Assembly: GCF_026008495.1 (NCBI RefSeq)
Contig: NZ_BQUN01000089.1
Location: 1-64,000 of the forward strand
Length of the DNA stretch: 64,000 nt
Direction: 5' to 3'
From: Streptomyces sp. A012304
GTDB taxonomy: Bacteria; Actinomycetota; Actinomycetes; Streptomycetales; Streptomycetaceae
The position numbers and the translations under genes were made by a program. Every line of letters starts with the position of its first letter. Position 1 is the first letter of the stretch. The notes under the pieces were generated by a model. That model was not told the origin of the DNA. It did no database searches and saw nothing but the letters and a program-made list of their open reading frames with translations. Of this stretch, positions 55,222-64,000 are shown one piece after another.

Positions 55222-58005
55222 TCAGTCTCCCGCCACGCGCAATCCCCTGCCCGCACCCGTCACGGCCAGCGCCCCGTCCCGGTCCGTGCGCAGCACCACC
55301 GCGCCGGTGGCCCGCAGCGCCGCGACCGTGCCGGGCGCGGGGTGGCCGTAGGGGTTGTCCGCGCCGCAGGAGATCAGCGCCACCCGTGGCGCCACCGCGC
55401 GGAGCAGGTCCGGATCCTGGTAGGCGGAGCCATGGTGCGCCACCTTCAGGACGTCCACGCCATCGAGCAGCGCGGCCGCCGGTGACCGTGCCAGCGCCCG
55501 CTGCGCCGGCGGTTCCAGGTCCCCCAGCAGCAGCATCCGCAACCCGGCCGACCGCACGAGCAGCGTCACACTCGCGTCGTTCGGCCCCTCGGGTTCCGGC
55601 ATCCCCCGCGCCGCCGGCGTGGGTCCGCCCGCGAGGGTCCGAGAGCTCGGGGGAGGCCACAGCACCTCCCAGTCGAGGTCACCGAGCCGCCGCCGCTCCC
55701 CCAGCACGGCCCGTCTCAGCGGAACCTCCCGGGCCCGCGCCTCCTTCCGTACGAACTCCACCTGGTCGGCGGGTTCCTCGAACCCCGTCGTCTCGATCGC
55801 GCCCACCGCCCGCCCCCGCAGCACTCCCGGCAGCCCCGCCACATGATCGGCGTGGAAGTGGGTCAGCACGACGAGCGGGATCCTGGTGATGCCGAGGGTG
55901 CGCAGGCATCGGTCGGCGAGGGCCGGATCGGGTCCCGCGTCCACCACCACACCGGCGCCGTCGCCCGCCGCGAGCACCGTCGCGTCCCCCTGTCCCACGT
56001 CGCACATGGCGAGCCGCCAGCCCGGCGGCGGCCAGCCGGTGATCACCCGGGTCAGCGGCGGCGGCTGCACCACCACGAGCAGCAGCAGCGCCCCGCAGAC
56101 CCCGCACAGCCACGGACGGCGCACCAGCCGCCGACCGAGCAGCACCAGCCCGCCGATGACGAGGGCGAGCAGCAGTGCCCCGCCCCAACCGCCCGGCCAG
56201 TCCACTCCCGCTCCGGGCAGCGCCGCGCCGGTCCACGCGACACCCGCGATCCACTCGGCGGGCCAACTCGCGCACCAGGCCAGCGCCTTGGCCACCGGCA
56301 TCGCCACGGGCGCCGTGGCCAGCGCCGCGAAGCCCAGCACCGTGGCCGGCGCCACCGCGAACTCCACGAGGAGGTTGCACGGCACCGCCACCAGGCTCAC
56401 CCGCGCCGACAGCACCGCCACGACCGGCGCGCACAGGGCCTGCGCGGCCCCGGCCGCCGCCAGCGCCTCCGCCAGCCGCGGCGGAACCCGGCGCCGGCGC
56501 AGCGCGGCGCTCCACCGCGGCGCCACCGTCAACAGCGCCCCCGTCGCCAGCACCGACAGCAAGAACCCGTAACTCCGGGCCAGCCACGGGTCGTACAGCA
56601 CCAGCAGCAGCACCGCCGTCGCCAGCGCAGGGATCAGGGATCTGCGACGGCCGGTCGCGAGAGCCAGCAGCACCACGGCCCCGCAGGCCGCCGCCCGCAG
56701 CACACTCGGGTCGGGCCGGCACACCACGACGAACCCGAGGGTGAGCGCTCCGCCGAGCAGCGCGGTCAGCCGCAGCGGAATGCCCAGGCGGGGCGCCAGC
56801 CCGCGCCGCTCCGCCAACTGGGCCATGCCAGGCGGCCCGAGCAGCAGCGCGAGCATGATGGTCAGGTTGCTCCCCGACACGGCCAGCGTGTGCGCGAGGT
56901 CCGTCTCCTTGAAGGCCTCGTCCAGTTCCGGTGTGATCCGCGAGGTGTCCCCGACGACCAGCCCCGGCAGCAGCGCCCGCGCGTCCGCCGGCAGTCCGTC
57001 GGTGGCCGCCCGCAGTCCCGCCCGCAGCCGGCCCGCCACCCGCTGAGCCGTCGACGGCCCCCGCAGGACCACGGGACCCGCCCGCCGTTCCCGTACCCGC
57101 AGCACGGCCGCGATCCGGTCCCCGCCGGTCAGCGCGGGGGCCAGCCGCCCGGTCACCCGCACCCTCGTGGACGGCAGCAGCCCGAGCCACGTCTCCCCCG
57201 CCGGACGGCGGGCGAACCTGGCCGGTCCGCCGCTCTCCCGGCCGTCCACGACCAACAGCACCGGCGCCCGTGTCGCCACCGCCGCCCCGGTCGTCGCCTC
57301 GACCCGGCGGACCTCCGCGTCGATCAGCACCGAGTCCGCAGTGACGTGGTCGCCCTTCACCCGGGGCCGGGAGCGCCGGGGGTCGGAGGTGATCTCCACC
57401 TCCGCGGTGACCGTGGCGTACTCCCGCGCCCACCCCGGCACGGGCCCCCGCCGCAGATCGGCCCCGTGCAACCCGGCCGAAGCGGCGGCCCCGGCCACAC
57501 ACAGCAGCACCGCGGCGACAACCACCCGAGCCCGACCGATCTTCCTTCCCGACTCCGGCTCACCTCGCGCCCGACCGACGGTCCTCCCCACCTCCCGCTC
57601 ACCTCGCAGCCGACCGAGCGTCCTTCCCGACTCCGGCACATCCCCCGCCCGCCCATGCGCCCGTTCCTCCGGCTCACCCCGCGCGCGACCAAGCACCCCT
57701 CCCGACACCCCCTCACCCCGCACCGGCCCCCGCCGCACGCCCAGGAGAACACCGGCCGCGAGTACGCAGCCGAGGGCGACGCAGGTCACCAGCTCCGGCG
57801 GCGCGTCGAGTGCCAGCGCCGCCGTCGCCCAGGCCGCGAGGGCGGGCGGTACCAACCGCAGGTCCACCGGCCCTTCCTGACGCGGGTGGGCCGATCCCAG
57901 CCGTTTCCCGGAGGCGAGGTGCACGGCCTGCCGGGGACGCGAGCCGGAGACGGCGCGGTCCCCGGAACCCGGGTACGCCGACGAGGCGTTGGTCTCCTCC
58001 CTCAT
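55222..58005 (-). CDS. comEC: ComEC/Rec2 family DNA-uptake membrane protein
   Basis: This 927-residue protein has N-terminal membrane helices (about 51-90 and 161-177), a soluble OB-like domain (DUF4131), and then the competence domain with about eight helices (AHTLAVSGSNLTIMLALLLG). A C-terminal metallo-beta-lactamase domain (CDVGQGDATVLAAG, LTHFHADHVAGL, LKVAHHGSAYQDP) completes the protein. It is the DNA-conducting channel and nuclease partner in competence. ATG 58005 overlaps the comEA stop as ATGA. A 13-aa repeat expansion lies between helices 1 and 2. Its usual partner ComEA is cut by the inserted element. Confidence 0.93.
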   Translation of the reverse strand: MREETNASSAYPGSGDRAVSGSRPRQAVHLASGKRLGSAHPRQEGPVDLRLVPPALAAWATAALALDAPPELVTCVALGCVLAAGVLLGVRRGPVRGEGVSGGVLGRARGEPEERAHGRAGDVPESGRTLGRLRGEREVGRTVGRARGEPESGRKIGRARVVVAAVLLCVAGAAASAGLHGADLRRGPVPGWAREYATVTAEVEITSDPRRSRPRVKGDHVTADSVLIDAEVRRVEATTGAAVATRAPVLLVVDGRESGGPARFARRPAGETWLGLLPSTRVRVTGRLAPALTGGDRIAAVLRVRERRAGPVVLRGPSTAQRVAGRLRAGLRAATDGLPADARALLPGLVVGDTSRITPELDEAFKETDLAHTLAVSGSNLTIMLALLLGPPGMAQLAERRGLAPRLGIPLRLTALLGGALTLGFVVVCRPDPSVLRAAACGAVVLLALATGRRRSLIPALATAVLLLVLYDPWLARSYGFLLSVLATGALLTVAPRWSAALRRRRVPPRLAEALAAAGAAQALCAPVVAVLSARVSLVAVPCNLLVEFAVAPATVLGFAALATAPVAMPVAKALAWCASWPAEWIAGVAWTGAALPGAGVDWPGGWGGALLLALVIGGLVLLGRRLVRRPWLCGVCGALLLLVVVQPPPLTRVITGWPPPGWRLAMCDVGQGDATVLAAGDGAGVVVDAGPDPALADRCLRTLGITRIPLVVLTHFHADHVAGLPGVLRGRAVGAIETTGFEEPADQVEFVRKEARAREVPLRRAVLGERRRLGDLDWEVLWPPPSSRTLAGGPTPAARGMPEPEGPNDASVTLLVRSAGLRMLLLGDLEPPAQRALARSPAAALLDGVDVLKVAHHGSAYQDPDLLRAVAPRVALISCGADNPYGHPAPGTVAALRATGAVVLRTDRDGALAVTGAGRGLRVAGD
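57526..57696 (-). repeat. 39-bp (13-aa) repeats inside comEC
   Basis: Residues 104-160 read as degenerate units such as TLGRLRGEREVGR and TVGRARGEPESGR. At DNA level the 39-bp units are close copies (CTCACCTCGC and CCGACCGA recur). They lie in the loop between two membrane segments, where ComEC proteins normally have a short link. Confidence 0.75.
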
Positions 58006-58055
58006 GGCCGCACCAGGTTCCGCAGATCGGCGAAGCGCCGCTCGCCGAGAGGCAC
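58002..58055 (-). pseudogene. comEA: 3' remnant of comEA at the element junction
   Basis: Minus-strand codons VPLGERRFADLRNLVRP-stop end at 58002. This is the typical end of ComEA (last helix-hairpin-helix, usually GIGERRFADL.NLVR), and the TGA overlaps the comEC start, as comEA-comEC pairs do. Upstream of GER the likeness stops (PL where GI is expected), so the gene is broken at about 58046-58050. The missing 5' part would lie beyond the far end of the element. Confidence 0.65.
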
Positions 58056-58082
58056 CCGGCAACCTAGCAAAGCATGCAAAGC

Positions 58083-58118
58083 GGCCCCGAACCGGTGCTA
58101 CCAACACCGGCCGGGGCC
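58083..58118 (+). promoter_or_regulatory. Leader hairpin 1 of the element operon
   Basis: GGCCCCG and CGGGGCC, then CCGGTG and CACCGG, form a two-part stem capped by the loop CTACCAA. The stem is strong enough to terminate, but the identical loop in hairpin 2 suggests a recognised RNA structure. Confidence 0.55.
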
Positions 58119-58128
58119 TGACGGAACA

Positions 58129-58143
58129 CCTGCTACCAACAGG
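58129..58143 (+). promoter_or_regulatory. Leader hairpin 2, same loop, covers the ribosome site
   Basis: CCTG-CTACCAA-CAGG; the right arm is part of AGGAG (58141-58145), the ribosome site of the gene at 58153. Folding would hide it, so this may be a translational switch sharing its loop with hairpin 1. Confidence 0.5.
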
Positions 58144-58152
58144 AGACCCGCT

Positions 58153-58536
58153 ATGGCACATGCTGCCACCCGCCGCGAGCACCGCGCCAAGCGCCGTGCC
58201 CTTCGCGCCACCCTCCGCCGTCGTACGGCCGAAACCCGCGCCACCCGGCGCGCCGTTCGCGCCGTCGCCACCGGCACCCCGCAGCCCGTCCGTACCCGCC
58301 TCGTCGCGGCCGGCCTCGACGACGCCACCGCCCGCCGCTTCGCCGGCGCCTTCTCCCGGGGCCTGGTCGCCGACGACGTCCGCGAGACGAAGATCAAGCT
58401 GAAGGCCCGCGTCACCCGCCGCGTGCAGGTGAAGCTGTTCACCGCCCGCACCTTCGCCGCCCGCCTGGCCACCTACCGGCCCAAGGACCGCGTCGTCGCC
58501 GCCCGCTTCGAGCTGCTGGCGGGGGTGGCCGCGTGA
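58153..58536 (+). CDS. Arg-rich small protein, first gene of the element operon
   Basis: This 127-residue protein is extremely basic at the N-terminus (RREHRAKRRALRATLRRR), with Ala-rich helices and no membrane segment. A nucleic-acid-binding role is suggested by charge only. I do not recognise the family. ATG 58153 has AGGAG at 58141. The stop overlaps the next start (GTGATG). Confidence 0.65.
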   Translation: MAHAATRREHRAKRRALRATLRRRTAETRATRRAVRAVATGTPQPVRTRLVAAGLDDATARRFAGAFSRGLVADDVRETKIKLKARVTRRVQVKLFTARTFAARLATYRPKDRVVAARFELLAGVAA

Positions 58537-59084
58537 TGTCGAACTCCCGCCGCCGTACCACCGGCAACCGCTTCGGTCTCCTGGCCACCCCGCACCCGGC
58601 CGACATCGCCGCCGAGCACGCCGAAGCCCTCGACACCCTCGACTTCGACAAGCTCATCGCCGCAGTGCCCGACGCCGTCGACACCGCAATGCAGCAGGCG
58701 ATCCCCCACCGCTACAACCCCACCATCGCCGCCTCGATCGCCGCCGACATCACCGCCCGACTGTGCAAGGCGCGGCAGGGCGACGCCTACGAGTGCCCCG
58801 TCTGGCCCGGCCTCTGCGTCGAGACCGAGCCCGGCCACTACGACCACCACAACCACCGCAACTTCGTCACCGACAAGCGCGGCGAGCGCATGCTCGACAT
58901 CGGGTTCATCCAGTTCTCCGACGAGGAGGGCGCGGCACCGCCCAAGATCTGCATCTCCGGCATGGGCAGCGAGGACTACGACCCGTCCGAGGTGCGTGAG
59001 AAGACGGCCGAGATCCGGCGCATGCTCGACGAGGCCGACGCCATCGCCGACCGGATCATCGCGCAGCGCCGGGACGGCGCGTGA
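58536..59084 (+). CDS. Conserved element protein with a His/Cys cluster
   Basis: This protein has 182 residues from ATG 58536 (GTG 58533 also possible). The middle holds ECPVWPGLCVETEPGHYDHH, a Cys/His pattern that could bind a metal, followed by acidic DEEGAAPPKICISG. The last 40 residues form a helix. It resembles Streptomyces element proteins of the DUF6907 kind in having a Cys-Trp-His segment, but the match is uncertain. Coupled to both neighbours. Confidence 0.55.
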   Translation: MSNSRRRTTGNRFGLLATPHPADIAAEHAEALDTLDFDKLIAAVPDAVDTAMQQAIPHRYNPTIAASIAADITARLCKARQGDAYECPVWPGLCVETEPGHYDHHNHRNFVTDKRGERMLDIGFIQFSDEEGAAPPKICISGMGSEDYDPSEVREKTAEIRRMLDEADAIADRIIAQRRDGA

Positions 59085-59608
59085 CCTCCCGTAAGGCCGA
59101 GCAGGCGCCCACCCTCGCCGGGGTGGGCGCCGTGCCCCCGGCCTCTCCCAGCATCGCCGCGCTCGCCGCCTGCAACAGCGAGCTGGAGACCGCGGTCCGG
59201 GTCGCCCGTACGCTGCTCGCCGACTACGGCGACTCCAGCCGGAACGGCTTCTCCTACCCGGAGGGATACGGCGCCATCTCCGAGGCCCTCCGCCTCGTGC
59301 TCCGCGCCCTCGACGCCGAGCCGGAAGGGTCCGCAATGGTGCGGACCCCTGGCGGTGACCAGCGCTGCCCGGCCGCGCACCCCGAGGACCCCACCCCGTG
59401 CGGCGGTCCGGTCGTCGTCACCATCCTCGACCGCGACAACGGCGGCGCCGACGGGTGTGAGCACCACGGCGCCCGGCTCCTCGCCTCCCTCGACGGAGGA
59501 CGCGTCTACGCCCTCCCCGACGCCCCGGCCGGCGCTGCCATCCGCACCTTCAAGGTCGCGGGCAGCCTCCGCCCCTTCTGCTGGATGGAGCGGGGTGAGC
59601 GCCCGTGA
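59081..59608 (+). CDS. Hypothetical element protein, 175 aa
   Basis: GTG 59081 overlaps the previous stop as GTGA. The first 90 residues form an amphipathic helical region (ALAACNSELETAVRVARTLL). The second half has CPAAHPEDPTPCGGPV and DGCEHHGARLLASL, a CxxH/CxxH-like arrangement that may bind zinc. No known family comes to mind. It lies within the operon of small accessory genes and looks intact. Confidence 0.6.
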   Translation: MTSRKAEQAPTLAGVGAVPPASPSIAALAACNSELETAVRVARTLLADYGDSSRNGFSYPEGYGAISEALRLVLRALDAEPEGSAMVRTPGGDQRCPAAHPEDPTPCGGPVVVTILDRDNGGADGCEHHGARLLASLDGGRVYALPDAPAGAAIRTFKVAGSLRPFCWMERGERP

Positions 59609-59979
59609 GCAGCGAACAGCCCATGGTCACCCTCGACACCGAGGACTACGGGCCGGTCACCCTGCCCGAGCCCGGCTGGTGCGCCGGCCACACCGACCAC
59701 CGGACCGACAGCCAGCGCATCGACCTCGACCACAAGGGACACGAGCACCGCCTCACCCACGACGGCGAACTGCTGTGGACCGCATTCCTCGCCCAGGCCC
59801 CCTACGCCAGCAGCCCGCAGGCCCGCGCCCTCGGCGTGTACGTCGAGCAGGGCAGCTACGCCCACACCCTCGACGCCACCGGCCTGTACGACCTGGCCGC
59901 CTCCTTCGACGCGCACGCCGACCGGCTCCGCGAACTCGCCGACCAGCTCACCCAACTCCACGACAGCGAGGGCCAGTGA
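59605..59979 (+). CDS. DUF6907-like element protein
   Basis: This 124-residue protein starts GTG 59605, overlapping the previous stop. PEPGWCAGHTDHRTDSQRID has the Trp-Cys-x2-His pattern of small actinobacterial element proteins (DUF6907 type). A C-terminal helix with leucine heptads follows (LYDLAASFDAHADRLRELAD), able to form a coiled coil. The function of the family is unknown. Coupled to the following membrane-protein gene. Confidence 0.6.
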   Translation: MSSEQPMVTLDTEDYGPVTLPEPGWCAGHTDHRTDSQRIDLDHKGHEHRLTHDGELLWTAFLAQAPYASSPQARALGVYVEQGSYAHTLDATGLYDLAASFDAHADRLRELADQLTQLHDSEGQ

Positions 59980-60422
59980 CCACCACCGAGCAACTGTCCA
60001 CCGCGCACGCCGAGGTGAAAGCCGAGATCACCCGGACCGACACCAAAACCGGACTCCTCCTGGCGTTCGTCGGCGCCGTCCTCGCCGGAACCTGGACCGT
60101 CGCCCGCGGCCTCCCCCTGAACCTCCCCGCCTACCTCGCCGGCGGCACCGGTATCGCGCTGCTGGTCGCGGCGGCCGGACTGCTGCTGCGGTCGGTGCGC
60201 CCCAACCTGCACGGCCGCCACGGCTTCCCCCTGTGGGCCACCCTCACCCCCGAGGAGATCACCACCACCCTGACCGGCAGGGACCTCGCGGCCGACGTCG
60301 CCGGCCTGTCCCGGCTCGCGATGGTGAAGTACACCGCCCTGCGCCGCGCGGTCGACCTCACCATGGCCGGCGGCGCCCTGCTCGTCCTTGCCGCCCTGCT
60401 CGCGGCGGGCGGTGCCCTGTGA
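59976..60422 (+). CDS. Membrane protein resembling Pycsar TM effectors (PycTM)
   Basis: This protein has 148 residues from GTG 59976. Two membrane helices (about 30-50 and 55-75, TKTGLLLAFVGAVLAG and YLAGGTGIALLVAAAGLLL) are followed by a soluble segment. That segment contains LTPEEITTTLTGRDLAADVAGLSRLAMVKYTALRRAVDL, split here at AADV, and a last helix to the end. The D-TK-GLLL start, LSR.A..KY..LRRAV and C-terminal helix match the Pycsar effector TM family. No pyrimidine cyclase gene is in the window, so an Spd-like spread function in transfer is also possible. Confidence 0.6.
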   Translation: MTTTEQLSTAHAEVKAEITRTDTKTGLLLAFVGAVLAGTWTVARGLPLNLPAYLAGGTGIALLVAAAGLLLRSVRPNLHGRHGFPLWATLTPEEITTTLTGRDLAADVAGLSRLAMVKYTALRRAVDLTMAGGALLVLAALLAAGGAL

Positions 60423-60619
60423 AGCGCTCGGTAGTGGCGCGCCCGACCGAGACGGCCGCCATCCGCGCCGCGGCCCTCTCGGCCCGGCCCATCCCCCCGG
60501 TCCACACGATCCTCGCCGACATGGTCACCGCCCACCGGGCGGGCGACCAGCACGGCGTCAACCTCTGCGCGCACCTCGCCGTACGCGCCGCCGCCCCCAC
60601 GGAGGTGGGCGAAGCATGA
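60419..60619 (+). CDS. Small element protein, 66 aa
   Basis: GTG 60419 overlaps the previous stop, and the stop overlaps the next start (ATGA). The protein (VKRSVVARPTETAAIRAAAL) is Ala-rich and helical with one Cys, and has no membrane segment. No family is recognised. Its coupling on both sides supports expression. Confidence 0.55.
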   Translation: MKRSVVARPTETAAIRAAALSARPIPPVHTILADMVTAHRAGDQHGVNLCAHLAVRAAAPTEVGEA

Positions 60620-61560
60620 ACAAGCTCAAGCACGCCAGCACCTGGGCGCTGCCGGTCCTGCTGACCGTGATCGCCGTCGTGTGGGCCGTCGCCGCCATCG
60701 GCGGCATCCTCACCGCCACCGCGCACCCCGCGTTCGCGTACTCCGTCGCCGTCCTCTACGACGCCGTCTGGCTGTACGGGCTCGCGATGGAGACCGCCCA
60801 CCGCCGGCAGGGATCCAACGCCCGGCTCCCCGAGGTCGTCGGGTGGGTGTTCCTCCCCCTCACCGTCGCGGTCCTCGCCGTGCACGGCGTCCTCGCCGGG
60901 GATGCCCTCGCCGCGGCGGTCGGCGCCATCGTTCCCGTCCTCGCCAAGATGACGTTGGTCATGGCCATCGACCGCGACCGCACCCGGATCAGTCCGAGGG
61001 CGCAGGCCGCCATCGACCGCACCCGCGCCGTCACCCGTGACCGCATCGCCGTCTCCCGGGCCGTCGCCGCCGCACGCGCTGACGAGACCGTGGCCGCCGC
61101 CGGCATCATCAAGGCCTCCCGGGAGGCCGAAGCGGAAGCCATCACCACCGCCCACGACGCGTACGAGACGTACGCCGAGATCGTCGACCAGCACCCCGTG
61201 CCGGACTGGCACACCGACCTTCCCGCCCTGGTCTCGGACCGCGAGTTGGAAGCCCTCCTTGCGGGGGGTGTGCCAGAGGGTGATTCCGCTGGTGGCACGG
61301 GGGGTTTCCCGCTCACGGTCACACCCGGCGGTCACGGTTCTGGCACGCCCCCGCTGGAGGGGCCCAGGGAGGCCAACTCCCGGGCGGTCGCGCTGCTCGC
61401 CGTCGAGCTGTACGCGACCGATCCGCCGCCCTCGAAGCGGAAGTTCCGGGAGGCGATGCGGGCCGGGATGAAGGCGCGCGGGCTGACCGGCGGGTGGGAC
61501 GTGATCGACGCCCTGTACGACCGGGAGAAGGCACTTGCCGAGGGTGGTGACCCGTCGTGA
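60616..61560 (+). CDS. Spd-like transfer protein with four membrane helices (DUF2637-like)
   Basis: This protein has 314 residues from ATG 60616, with GGAGG 10 bases upstream. The first 125 residues hold four hydrophobic helices (ALPVLLTVIAVVWAVAAIGG, YSVAVLYDAVWLYGLAM, VGWVFLPLTVAVLAVHGVL, AVGAIVPVLAKMTLVMAI). A long helical region follows (about 130-195, many Ala/Arg), and then a Gly/Pro linker and a small C-terminal helical domain. This is the layout of SpdB-type proteins that help plasmid spread between mycelial compartments. Confidence 0.7.
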   Translation: MNKLKHASTWALPVLLTVIAVVWAVAAIGGILTATAHPAFAYSVAVLYDAVWLYGLAMETAHRRQGSNARLPEVVGWVFLPLTVAVLAVHGVLAGDALAAAVGAIVPVLAKMTLVMAIDRDRTRISPRAQAAIDRTRAVTRDRIAVSRAVAAARADETVAAAGIIKASREAEAEAITTAHDAYETYAEIVDQHPVPDWHTDLPALVSDRELEALLAGGVPEGDSAGGTGGFPLTVTPGGHGSGTPPLEGPREANSRAVALLAVELYATDPPPSKRKFREAMRAGMKARGLTGGWDVIDALYDREKALAEGGDPS

Positions 61561-61676
61561 AGCCGCTCACCGTCCCGGCCGTGGTCGTCTCGGCGGTCGT
61601 CCAGCCGGTCACCCTGGCGTTCGCCGCCGGTCTCCTCGCCCGCCCGCACCTGACCCGTAGGGGGTGGTCGAGGTGA
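61557..61676 (+). CDS. 39-aa membrane peptide in the transfer operon
   Basis: GTG 61557 overlaps the previous stop as GTGA and its own TGA overlaps the next GTG. VKPLTVPAVVVSAVVQPVTL forms most of a single membrane helix, followed by basic ARPHLTRRGWSR. It is shorter than most gene finders accept, but exact coupling on both sides supports it. Probably a small Spd protein. Confidence 0.55.
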   Translation: MKPLTVPAVVVSAVVQPVTLAFAAGLLARPHLTRRGWSR

Positions 61677-61993
61677 CCGAGGAGAACCCGCTCCAGAAGG
61701 CGGAAGCCGCCGTCCGCGCGGCCGAGACCGACACCGACATGGTCCGGATCGTCGCCGCCGTCCTCGCCGCCCAACAGGCCACCCAGCCCCAGCCGCCGGC
61801 GCCGACGCCGCGGTCCGTGCAGCGGCCCGTGGGCCTGTACGTCGCGGCCGGTATCGGCGGCGCCATCGCCCTCACATTCCTCGCCATGGCCGCCGCGCTC
61901 CTGGCGGTCGCCGTCGCGGTCGGCGCTGTCTGCGCGACCGTCTGCCTGCTCGTCCTCAAGAACCTGCTCGCCGACTACCAGAAGGGCCGCTGA
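61673..61993 (+). CDS. SpdD-like small membrane protein
   Basis: This protein has 106 residues from GTG 61673. An acidic, charged N-terminus (TEENPLQKAEAAVRAAETDT) and a Pro/Gln linker precede two membrane helices (about 57-92). A short tail LKNLLADYQKGR ends the protein. The size, position directly before the translocase and topology match SpdD-type proteins of Streptomyces conjugative elements. Confidence 0.6.
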   Translation: MTEENPLQKAEAAVRAAETDTDMVRIVAAVLAAQQATQPQPPAPTPRSVQRPVGLYVAAGIGGAIALTFLAMAAALLAVAVAVGAVCATVCLLVLKNLLADYQKGR

Positions 61994-62258: not shown

Positions 62259-64000
62259 ATGACCGACACCTTGCCGCGGCCCGTGGTCAACGGGCACGCC
62301 GATCCGGCCGTGTCGCTGCTGAAGTTCGCCCCCGAGCCGCCGGCCTACGTCGCCGACGACGACGTCGTCGAGGCGGTCGACCGCCCGGACAACCCGCTCG
62401 CCGACTGGCTGACCGTGCCGGACGTGCCGATCCTGCCCGCGTGGGCCCGCTCCGCGGCATCCCTCAGGGCCAACACCGCGGCCCTCGGCCGACTGTGCGC
62501 GTGGCACGCCCGCTACCACACGCTCAGGGTGCCGAAGTACGCGTTCCGTCTCGCCTGGCTCGCCCTCAAGGGCGCCTGGCGTGGGATGCGCGGCTTGTGG
62601 CCGACCCTGGCCGCGCACGACCAGAGCGCCGCGGTGAAAGCCCTGCGCGCGCAGGTGAAGGCCAAGCCCGACGACGTCGACCTCGCCGTCCGGTACGCGC
62701 TGCTGCACCGGGAACGCACCCTTGCCCGCCGCTGGCGCTTCGGTGCCGCCGCCACGGCCGTCGCCGCCAGTGCGGTCGGCTGGTACCTGGCGCCGCCGCT
62801 GCTGCAGACCGCCGGCATGCTCGCCGCAGCCGTCCCGCTCGCCTACCTCGGGCGCGGCGACGACGCGCAACTGCTCGATAACCCGACGCCGCCCCTGCGC
62901 GTCGACATGTCCGCCCAGCAGCTCAACGACGCGCTGCGCGCCGCAGGCCTGCTCAAGCAGGGCAAGGGCGACGACGAGGGCCCCCGCGTCACCTGCGTCA
63001 TGGGCCCGGTACGCGACGGGCGCGGCTGGTCGGTCATCTTCGACCTGCCCAAGGGTGGCGGGAAGACCGCGGCGGATGTCCTCGCCAAGCGCACGGCGAT
63101 CGCCGCCGAGCTCGGAGTCGACGAGATCCAGGTCATCGCCTCCCGCGTCCGCGCGGCGGCCGGCGGCAACGCCGGGCGGGTGTCGATGTGGGTCGCCGAC
63201 GACGACCCCTACCTCGGCACGCCGAACCCGTCGCCGCTGGTCAAGGCGGAGACGTTCTCCGTGTGGGACCCGATCCCGTTCGGGCAGGACGCCCGCGGCA
63301 ACCGCATCACCGTGCCCGTGATGTGGCAGTCGCTGTTCTTCGGCGGCCTGCCCCGCCGCGGCAAGACGTTCACGCAGCGCCTGATGACCGCGGCCGGCCT
63401 GCTCGACCCTTTCGTCAGGCACTACGTCGCCGACGGCAAGGGCGGCGCCGACTGGATGCCGATGAAGGCCGTCGCGCACCGCCTGGTGATGGGCGCCGAG
63501 GACGACGCCGTCGAAGCGCTGAAGGCGATGCTGAAGGAGCTGCTGGCGGAGATGGAGCGCCGGTTCGTGCTGCTGCGCGGCCTGCCCGTCTCCGTCTGCC
63601 CCGAGGGCAAGCTGACCCCGGCCATCGTGGAGAAGTACAACCTGCCGGTCATCTTCGTGACCATCGACGAACTGCAGGAGTACTTCACCGCCATGGACCG
63701 CGAGGACCGTGAGCAGGTCATCAACGACCTGTGCCGCATCGCACGGCGCGGGCCGGCCGCCGGGTTCGTCTCCAACTTCGCCTCCCAGCGCCCCGACGCC
63801 GAGTCCGTGCCGACGAAGCTACGGGAGATCATCACCCTCAGATACTGCACGCAGGTCGTCGACCAGACCAGCTCAGACATGGTGCTCGGCAAGGGCAAGG
63901 CCGCCCAGGGCGCCGACGCCTCCGTGCTGTCCGAGGACCACCGTGGTACGGGCGTCCTCGTCACCGGGCCGGCGTCTTTCGTGACCGTGCGGGCCGACTT
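62259..64000 (+). CDS. traB: FtsK/SpoIIIE-type DNA translocase (TraB/TraSA), 3' end beyond window
   Basis: At least 580 residues are visible from ATG 62259 (AGGAG upstream). An N-terminal region with a membrane segment pair (about 165-205, FGAAATAVAASAVGWYLAPP) is followed by the FtsK-type ATPase domain. Walker A is GLPRRGKTF near residue 368 and Walker B VIFVTIDELQEY near 470, then ASQRPDAESVPTKLRE. Streptomyces Tra proteins of this kind move double-stranded DNA between cells without a relaxase. The frame is open to the last base. Confidence 0.85.
   Translation, partial: MTDTLPRPVVNGHADPAVSLLKFAPEPPAYVADDDVVEAVDRPDNPLADWLTVPDVPILPAWARSAASLRANTAALGRLCAWHARYHTLRVPKYAFRLAWLALKGAWRGMRGLWPTLAAHDQSAAVKALRAQVKAKPDDVDLAVRYALLHRERTLARRWRFGAAATAVAASAVGWYLAPPLLQTAGMLAAAVPLAYLGRGDDAQLLDNPTPPLRVDMSAQQLNDALRAAGLLKQGKGDDEGPRVTCVMGPVRDGRGWSVIFDLPKGGGKTAADVLAKRTAIAAELGVDEIQVIASRVRAAAGGNAGRVSMWVADDDPYLGTPNPSPLVKAETFSVWDPIPFGQDARGNRITVPVMWQSLFFGGLPRRGKTFTQRLMTAAGLLDPFVRHYVADGKGGADWMPMKAVAHRLVMGAEDDAVEALKAMLKELLAEMERRFVLLRGLPVSVCPEGKLTPAIVEKYNLPVIFVTIDELQEYFTAMDREDREQVINDLCRIARRGPAAGFVSNFASQRPDAESVPTKLREIITLRYCTQVVDQTSSDMVLGKGKAAQGADASVLSEDHRGTGVLVTGPASFVTVRAD

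What the first reader, a model, noticed from the sequence alone, without database searches (positions are those of the whole stretch)
58002..58082. Conjugative element appears to be inserted in comEA
Seen: the comEC start overlaps a minus-strand TGA that ends VPLGERRFADLRNLVRP, the expected ComEA C-terminus, but nothing upstream of GER matches ComEA, and plus-strand transfer genes begin 100 bp later. AICEs usually use tRNA genes, so a competence gene as target would be unusual, and it would knock out ComEA while leaving ComEC.
Basis: partly seen in the sequence, partly recalled or inferred. Interest (0 to 1): 0.65.

Follow-up and report, generated by a model that had tools for sequence, protein, structure and literature searches.

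The report
Conjugative element inserted in comEA
A 20 kb, probably self-transferring DNA element of a Streptomyces-type bacterium has inserted itself, by its own serine integrase, near the end of the DNA-uptake gene comEA, and close relatives of that integrase use the same spot in other actinobacteria.

Summary
The finding is right. Beyond the window the same contig holds the missing 5' part of comEA (C88:78142-79140) beside a 507-aa large serine integrase (C88:76608-78131). The element is 20,119 bp; its ends share only TCGGCGA (window 58042-58048; C88:78161-78167). Joining the flanks restores a normal ComEA end, as in all 29 relatives' loci read. Integrase, Prim-Pol and FtsK/SpoIIIE-type Tra score above Pfam cut-offs, the published AICE criteria. 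The target belongs to the integrase clade: of the 13 best relatives in public genomes 10 sit at comEA, one is an uninterrupted attP, one sits in a tetR-like gene, one is unreadable; none of the other 67 loci kept shows comEA, though some are cut by contig ends. A 14.8 kb circular contig with an uninterrupted attP suggests a free form. The crossover replaces ComEA's last 13 residues and cuts comEC off from comEA. Insertions into competence genes are known (comK, comYC, comFA, comM, comEC); my searches found no report of comEA as an AICE target. Whether DNA uptake is disabled, spared or switched is not shown.

The parts
55222..58005 (-). comEC, intact (927 aa), host gene downstream of the insertion
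   Evidence: ORF list; NCBIfam TIGR00360 ComEC_N-term 49.8 bits, cut-off 36.5; TIGR00361 ComEC_Rec2 E 1e-35 but 123 bits, below its cut-off of 190
58002..58043 (-). comEA 3' remnant (ERRFADLRNLVRP and stop), host side of attR; stop overlaps the comEC start
   Evidence: translation; same layout as the comEA tails of relatives
58042..58048 (-). attR core TCGGCGA; inferred crossover dinucleotide GA is 58043-58042. The second copy is C88:78161-78167, outside the window
58061..58066 (+). AACCTA, outer arm of the attP inverted repeat (TAGGTT-17-GA-17-AACCTA on the comEA strand when attP is rejoined)
58083..58118 (-). GC-rich hairpin at the tra-side end of the element; a hairpin is seen near the same end in 13 of 14 related element ends folded (by eye, own included); terminator function is inferred only
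   Evidence: no terminator pattern found in this copy
58153..58536 (+). first gene of the transfer-side operon, 127 aa, no Pfam family
58533..59084 (+). element gene, 183 aa, no Pfam family
59081..59608 (+). element gene, 175 aa, no Pfam family
59605..59979 (+). element gene, DUF6907 (PF21848); relatives near the tra-side end of G292, G409, G412, G408 and L175 elements (cluster c2)
59976..60422 (+). membrane protein of the PycTM type (PF18967 57.9 bits, cut-off 27.2)
60613..61560 (+). element gene, 315 aa, hydrophobic N-terminus by eye (spread-protein-like by recall only); no Pfam family above cut-off
61664..61993 (+). element gene, 109 aa, relatives in G091, G292 and G411 elements (cluster c8)
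62259..64000 (+). Tra (FtsK/SpoIIIE-type translocase), 732 aa, runs on to C88:64457. The rest of the element (GntR 64579-64851; tape-measure-like 65778-68477; Prim-Pol 73666-74610; integrase 76608-78131) and the comEA 5' part (78142-79140) lie beyond the window
   Evidence: PF01580 28.2 bits, cut-off 24; PHROG FtsK/SpoIIIE-like E 2.6e-27

Best explanation
It is an actinomycete integrative and conjugative element (AICE), 20,119 bp, that was integrated into comEA by its own large serine integrase. Shown from sequence: the split comEA, the 7-base core, the integrase at the comEA-5' end, Tra at the comEC end, and the same arrangement in other genomes. Inferred: the integrase recombines an attP (arms TAGGTT and AACCTA, each 17 bases from a central GA) with an attB formed by the codons for G-I-G-[D/E]-R-R-F near the 3' end of comEA. 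The central GA is the first two bases of the Asp/Glu codon; it is not palindromic, so orientation is fixed: integrase next to the comEA 5' part, transfer genes next to comEC. The result is a ComEA whose last 13 residues are replaced by DPTCRW, and a comEC separated from the rest of comEA. Excision would restore the gene exactly; Tra would then move the circular form to another mycelium, where the conserved comEA codons serve as the landing site.
For: Own contig: comEA 5' part and adjacent integrase; rejoined flanks give NGIGERRFADLRNLVRP*; the tail is uninterrupted in 29 of 29 relatives' comEA loci read (best 30 loci of 41 genomes searched, own excluded); a strict attB pattern is intact in 215 of 295 genus genomes, with 0 control matches in the 295 rows, and absent from the own genome, G091 and G292. 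AICE modules above Pfam cut-offs: Recombinase 48/21.1, Prim-Pol 104.2/22.8, FtsK_SpoIIIE 28.2/24 bits. Recurrence: 3 of 392 genus genomes (own included) have an integrase of at least 69% identity over most of its length, and all three sit at comEA with comEC at the far end. In the public genome scan 10 of the 13 best integrases sit at comEA; 0 of the other 67 loci kept show it. Nine elements with both ends read, own included, measure 11.7-28.4 kb. The change falls at the codon after G-[I/V]-G in 12 of 12 further split ends translated. attP symmetry peaks at the core dinucleotide in 10 of 14 attP sequences (some are close relatives). Free forms: L175, a 14,811-bp circle (127-base terminal repeat) with uninterrupted attP; L077, an attP in a bin (G410) that also holds an intact comEA.
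Against: No free form was seen in this genome's own assembly, so mobility in this strain is not shown. In 4 of 14 attP sequences the symmetry centre is not at the core (G091, G409, L077, L181). One clade member (L084, Planomonospora) sits in a tetR-like gene instead. Tra relatives were found by clustering in 7 of 9 fully read elements; of four other Tra proteins scanned, FtsK_SpoIIIE is above the Pfam cut-off in G292 and G414 and below it in G091 and G411, so not all occupants are plainly AICEs. On the quick tree the comEA label needs five changes, not one (free and unreadable rows counted as 'other'). No recombination directionality factor could be named. L077 may be mis-binned.
Confidence: 0.95

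Rival explanations
1. Harmless-address view (about the target, compatible with the main explanation): comEA is used only because its end is conserved and the insertion lies 42 bases from the gene's end, so the host pays little; ComEA stays functional or was not needed.
For: Only 13 of an inferred 339 residues change. A serine-integrase site near a gene end with varied occupants is known in Streptomyces: the phiJoe/SCO2603 site lies 74 bp from the end of a radical-SAM gene (PMC5311408, passages). Deleting comEA/comEC in Kitasatospora L-forms did not change their DNA uptake (PMC9500057, abstract and passages). In the two Nonomuraea ends the frame runs on for at least 27 residues, so some replacement is possible there.
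Against: In 10 of the 12 translated ends the frame stops within 6 residues of the G-[I/V]-G, so no replacement helix is supplied. The lost part aligns with the last matched segment of solved ComEA chains 8dfk and 8dss. The tail is kept in all 29 relatives' loci read. comEC is also cut off from comEA.
Confidence: 0.45
2. Anti-competence view (compatible with the main explanation): the site is favoured because disabling DNA uptake protects the element from being removed by transformation, as argued for comYC, comK, comFA and comM insertions.
For: The clade mostly keeps the same target across Streptomycetaceae, Streptosporangiaceae and Pseudonocardiales despite integrase identity down to 48%. In Nonomuraea the core dinucleotide (CC) fits a host codon for Pro instead of Asp/Glu. 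General case: PMC4774983 (abstract and passages).
Against: A competence role of these genes in streptomycetes is not established; PMC9500057 saw no uptake by walled K. viridifaciens. Only 3 of 392 genus genomes carry such an integrase. One clade member has another target (L084). Conserved targeting is also what a harmless conserved address gives.
Confidence: 0.35
3. Reversible switch view: the element leaves comEA under some condition without being lost, turning the uptake operon on, as phi10403S does at comK in Listeria.
For: Excision would restore comEA exactly. A free circle and a free attP in a bin with an intact comEA exist in relatives. The comK precedent also involves a competence gene (PMC6872733, passages).
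Against: No expression or excision data; no free form in this assembly. The free forms are equally explained by ordinary transfer or mis-binning.
Confidence: 0.12
4. Assembly or annotation artefact, or an old rearrangement that only looks like an insertion.
For: The assembly is in 227 contigs.
Against: Both junctions lie inside one 117 kb contig with a clean shared core, and the same kind of junction pair was read in nine genomes, own included.
Confidence: 0.01

Closest known systems
AICEs with serine integrases (e.g. Faln2929, Mmar2129; PMC3218068, passages)
   Same: Serine recombinase of the PF07508 type, AICE replication and FtsK/SpoIIIE Tra modules, and for some a site in a protein gene
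   Different: Target gene comEA, and an integrase clade that mostly keeps this target across families and element types; no comEA, competence or helix-hairpin wording in that paper's main text (its tables were not readable here)
Competence-gene insertions: prophages in comK (A118/phi10403S), comYC, comFA; islands in comM; cassette in comEC (PMC4774983, PMC6872733, passages)
   Same: Site-specific element splitting a competence gene; related integrases hit the same gene across species
   Different: comEA as target, Actinobacteria, conjugative element, insertion 13 codons from the gene's end; in PMC4774983 comEA occurs once, as the receptor, and Streptomyces and Actinobacteria do not occur in the main text
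phiJoe / SCO2603 integrase site (PMC5311408, passages)
   Same: Streptomyces serine-integrase attB near a gene's 3' end, occupied by elements of very different size and content
   Different: Different target (radical-SAM gene) and central dinucleotide (GG there, GA here)
pSAM2 and SLP1 type AICEs (recalled, and PMC3218068 passages)
   Same: Tra and replication logic
   Different: They use tyrosine integrases and tRNA genes, which (recalled) are restored on insertion; here the target is not restored

Membership tests
AICE (definition of PMC3218068) | Integrase, tyrosine (PF00589) or serine (PF07508) | tested here: met
   PF07508 48 bits, cut-off 21.1; PF00239 48.4, cut-off 23.3
AICE (definition of PMC3218068) | Replication module RepSA, RepAM or Prim-Pol | tested here: met
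   PF09250 Prim-Pol 104.2 bits, cut-off 22.8, followed by a DNA polymerase/primase-like gene (PHROG E 1e-24)
AICE (definition of PMC3218068) | FtsK/SpoIIIE-type Tra (PF01580) | tested here: met
   28.2 bits, cut-off 24
AICE (definition of PMC3218068) | Element bounded by attL and attR in the chromosome | tested here: met
   Core TCGGCGA at both ends; flanks rejoin to a normal comEA end
AICE (definition of PMC3218068) | Excision and intermycelial transfer | not testable with these tools
   Only indirect: circular relative L175 and free attP L077
Large serine integrase | Catalytic domain, recombinase domain, zinc ribbon | tested here: met
   PF00239, PF07508, PF13408 all above cut-off; PHROG 95 integrase E 1.7e-70
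Large serine integrase | Symmetric attP about a non-palindromic central dinucleotide | tested here: met
   Own attP: 15 of 25 arm positions complementary, best of all centres, 5 of 300 shuffles as good at any centre; across 14 attP sequences 10 agree and 4 do not
Prophage | Terminase, portal, capsid genes in the element | tested here: not met
   Ten of the element's ORFs (26 called) scanned against PHROGs: one tape-measure-like protein, no capsid, portal or large terminase; two HTH proteins with weak small-terminase hits, E 8e-4 and 1e-3. The other ORFs were not scanned against PHROGs
Competence-gene switch (active lysogeny, comK type) | Regulated reversible excision that restores gene function | not testable with these tools
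   Exact restoration is predicted; regulation unknown

The most novel reading that the evidence does not exclude
A comEA-addressed serine-integrase clade, shared by AICEs, small tape-measure-bearing circles and phage-like contigs across actinobacterial families, acts as a reversible off-switch of the ComEA-ComEC DNA-uptake operon; its persistence would mean that this operon is functional and under conflict in streptomycetes, where a competence role has not been established.
Probability: 0.13. Interest if true: 0.85.

Novelty: new variant of a known kind. Interest (0 to 1): 0.58.

Why it matters
Elements that break competence genes are a main line of evidence for a conflict between transformation and mobile DNA, and in the passages I saw they come from Firmicutes and Proteobacteria. 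An integrase clade that keeps landing on the same codons of comEA in Actinobacteria would extend that pattern to bacteria whose competence genes have no established use, and makes the question testable. It also gives a well-defined candidate serine-integrase/attB pair in a gene found in most streptomycetes (369 of 392 genus genomes match the ComEA end region), which could be useful for vectors.

Tried and rejected
Second genomic match at C96 (31 bases, 91%): a chance resemblance inside another sequence, not an att site (judged by eye). Second HHH_3 protein as a spare comEA: an S1-domain protein, Tex-like by recall. tRNA target: no tRNA in the window. Isolated phages or plasmids with a close integrase: 285 phage and 12 plasmid records match, all under 60% identity. 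Promoter and terminator patterns at window 57900-58300: none found. Hairpin covariation over 8 hairpins: 5 of 14 pairs show a kept two-sided change, but 7 of 14 have broken or gapped cells; weak. Rate of comEA interruption by any element from a 69-residue search: only the best rows are listed, so no rate can be read. Papers on tape-measure genes in conjugative elements or satellites of actinobacteria: one five-term search, no hit. The careful tree did not finish; the quick tree was used. NCBIfam: the split ComEA is below both comEA cut-offs (TIGR01259 65.3 against 152.35, TIGR00426 49.6 against 53.1); intact relatives were not scanned, so this shows nothing about the damage.

Mistakes: one search used wrong coordinates for two of three rows and is not used; searches scanned window 58143-58538 in the wrong frame, redone against Pfam in the right frame but not against NCBIfam; searches failed on wrong coordinates and were rerun with corrected ones.
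Full report
What was claimed and checked. The window is C88:1-64000 of a 9.66 Mb, 227-contig genome. The contig goes on to 117,095, so the test could be run. HHH_3 (PF12836) hits C88:78157-78312 on the minus strand. The ORF there, C88:78142-79140, has SLBB, HHH and HHH_3 domains above cut-off and ends NGIGDPTCRW*. It matches the NCBIfam comEA models below their cut-offs (TIGR01259 65.3 against 152.35, TIGR00426 49.6 against 53.1 bits). Ten bases away on the same strand is a 507-aa large serine recombinase at C88:76608-78131.

Junctions. On the comEA strand the 5' side reads GGCATCGGCGA then TCCGACATG, and the comEC side reads CCTCTCGGCGA then GCGGCGC. They share TCGGCGA, at window 58042-58048 and C88:78161-78167, 20,119 bp apart. 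Joining the flanks gives TRHGGFRSVDELREVNGIGERRFADLRNLVRP*. In 29 of 29 relatives' comEA loci read (L039-L067; the best 30 loci of 41 genomes searched, 39 of which matched, own locus excluded) the tail runs on uninterrupted. A strict degenerate attB pattern is intact in 215 of 295 genus genomes, with no match in the own genome, G091 or G292 and no control match in the 295 rows; the pattern misses some intact genes (for example G010 and G023, intact), so 215 is a lower bound. The HHH_3 search gave one other hit in this genome, in an S1-domain protein that I recognise as Tex-like, so no spare comEA was seen.

What the element is. Integrase, Prim-Pol and FtsK_SpoIIIE all score above their Pfam cut-offs, which is the AICE definition of PMC3218068 (passages). 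Transfer-side genes run on the plus strand from 58153 to 64457; replication and other genes run on the minus strand up to the integrase. One gene is odd for an AICE: C88:65778-68477 encodes an 899-aa phage tape-measure-like protein (PHROG E 5e-103). No capsid, portal or large terminase was seen among the ten element ORFs scanned against PHROGs (26 ORFs were called).

The target belongs to the integrase clade, not to this one element. Of 392 genus genomes, three (own, G091, G292) carry an integrase of at least 69% identity over most of its length; only the three best candidates per genome were scored. All three sit directly after a comEA 5' part with comEC at the far end. A scan of public genome contigs found 132 relatives and kept the best 80. 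Of the 13 best (L075-L087, identity 48-73%), ten have comEA just before the integrase, L077 has an uninterrupted attP, L084 (Planomonospora) sits in a tetR-like gene, and L085 starts 40 bases before the integrase and cannot be read. None of the other 67 loci has a match to this ComEA by tblastn; seven of them have under 300 bases upstream of the match, and a strongly diverged comEA could be missed. Hosts with comEA hits are Streptomyces, Actinacidiphila, Streptantibioticus, Nonomuraea and a Pseudonocardiales MAG. Among 17 IMG/VR loci one more, L176, has comEA before the integrase. In a quick tree of 86 integrases (99 sequences had a match, short ones dropped; the careful tree did not finish), 12 of 13 comEA-labelled rows fall in one 20-row clade (SH-aLRT 99) with eight rows that are free, unreadable or viral-contig forms or L084. 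The 13th, L087, falls just outside with L179 and L088, which show no comEA. The label needs five changes on the tree (shuffled mean 12.1, 0 of 500 as low).

Site and geometry. Nine elements with both ends read measure 11,692 (G413), 16,142 (G292), 16,451 (G412), 16,799 (G411), 20,119 (own), 24,471 (G091), 25,349 (G409), 26,394 (G408) and 28,447 bp (G414). In 12 of 12 further split comEA ends translated, the change comes at the codon after G-[I/V]-G; in ten the frame stops within 6 residues, in the two Nonomuraea ends it runs on for at least 27. attP, rejoined in a script or read from free forms, is an imperfect inverted repeat whose best centre is the core dinucleotide in 10 of 14 cases (GA in nine, AC in L177); in G091, G409, L077 and L181 it is not. 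In Nonomuraea the junctions share GGCCC and the dinucleotide at the same codon position is CC, fitting Gly-Pro instead of Gly-Asp/Glu. So integrase and target codon seem to have changed together; this is inference, as no intact Nonomuraea comEA was read. In N. basaltis the integrase (40,910) and comEC (from about 121,870) lie about 80 kb apart on one contig.

Free forms. L175 from IMG/VR is 14,938 bases with a 127-base terminal repeat, hence a 14,811-bp circle, with uninterrupted attP and an integrase of 79% identity. It has a tape-measure-like gene and a DUF3987 helicase-like gene and no Tra relative by clustering. L077 lies in a MAG whose bin (G410) also holds an intact comEA; mis-binning cannot be excluded. 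In the window's own assembly no free copy was found.

Likely effects. Inferred: the last 13 residues of ComEA, most of which align with the last matched segment of solved ComEA chains 8dfk and 8dss, are replaced by DPTCRW; comEC is cut off from the rest of comEA. A GC-rich hairpin lies some 35-55 bases inside the comEC-side end in 13 of 14 ends folded, phage-like contigs included (by eye; G414 lacks a clear one). In L181 it is followed by a T run, so a terminator is plausible, but no terminator pattern was found in the window copy. TAACCT or TAATCT lies 6-7 bases before the integrase ATG in 14 of the 21 loci printed, which looks like a leaderless promoter carried by the element (inference), so the integrase need not depend on the comEA promoter.

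Known or new. Mobile elements in competence genes are established for comK, comYC, comFA and comM, with a cassette in comEC (PMC4774983, abstract and passages), and comK excision acts as a switch in Listeria (PMC6872733, passages). A serine-integrase site near a gene end with varied occupants is known in Streptomyces (phiJoe, PMC5311408, passages). Full-text searches for comEA with integrase/attB/Streptomyces, AICE terms, comEC/competence, serine integrase, large serine recombinase and insertion-site terms showed no report of comEA as an attachment site. Most hits were judged from title and start of abstract, and one search listed 15 of 189. Supplementary tables could not be read and subscription journals are mostly not held, so a listing elsewhere is possible. 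I therefore call it a new variant of a known kind.

What stays open. Whether ComEA is disabled, and whether the site is harmless, selected against competence, or a switch. Deletion of comEA/comEC in Kitasatospora L-forms had no effect on their DNA uptake, and walled cells showed none (PMC9500057, abstract and passages), so a competence role in these bacteria is not established.

Noticed in passing
C88:65778-68477 (L005:9779-12478); L175; L176; G408 element; L178: Tape-measure-like proteins (one blast cluster) occur in the AICE of this window and in four other loci with related integrases, including a 14.8 kb circle without a Tra relative; possibly phage satellites or AICE-phage hybrids.
   Followed up: partly
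L177, L178, L181 (IMG/VR): Contigs with related integrases and uninterrupted attP-like sites; L178 carries phage-type genes (RecE-like, DnaB-like, tape measure) and L177 an exonuclease and a replication-initiation gene, so phages may use the same integrase clade; L177 and L181 have AC rather than GA at the core.
   Followed up: partly
window 59976-60422: PycTM-type membrane protein (Pycsar effector family, PF18967 57.9 bits) in the transfer operon; a cyclase partner was not looked for.
   Followed up: no
L084 (Planomonospora parontospora): A clade member of 53% identity sits in the start of a tetR-like gene (named by eye) instead of comEA: a possible target change.
   Followed up: partly
L083 contig NZ_VCJS01000005.1 (Nonomuraea basaltis): About 80 kb lie between the comEA-site integrase and comEC on one contig, far more than in the nine elements measured; content not examined.
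   Followed up: no
loci L096-L109 and L115: Near-identical serine recombinases (about 38-40% to the query) are spread over several actinobacterial families, with a close relative in a Spirochaetia bin; looks like a recently spread mobile element.
   Followed up: no
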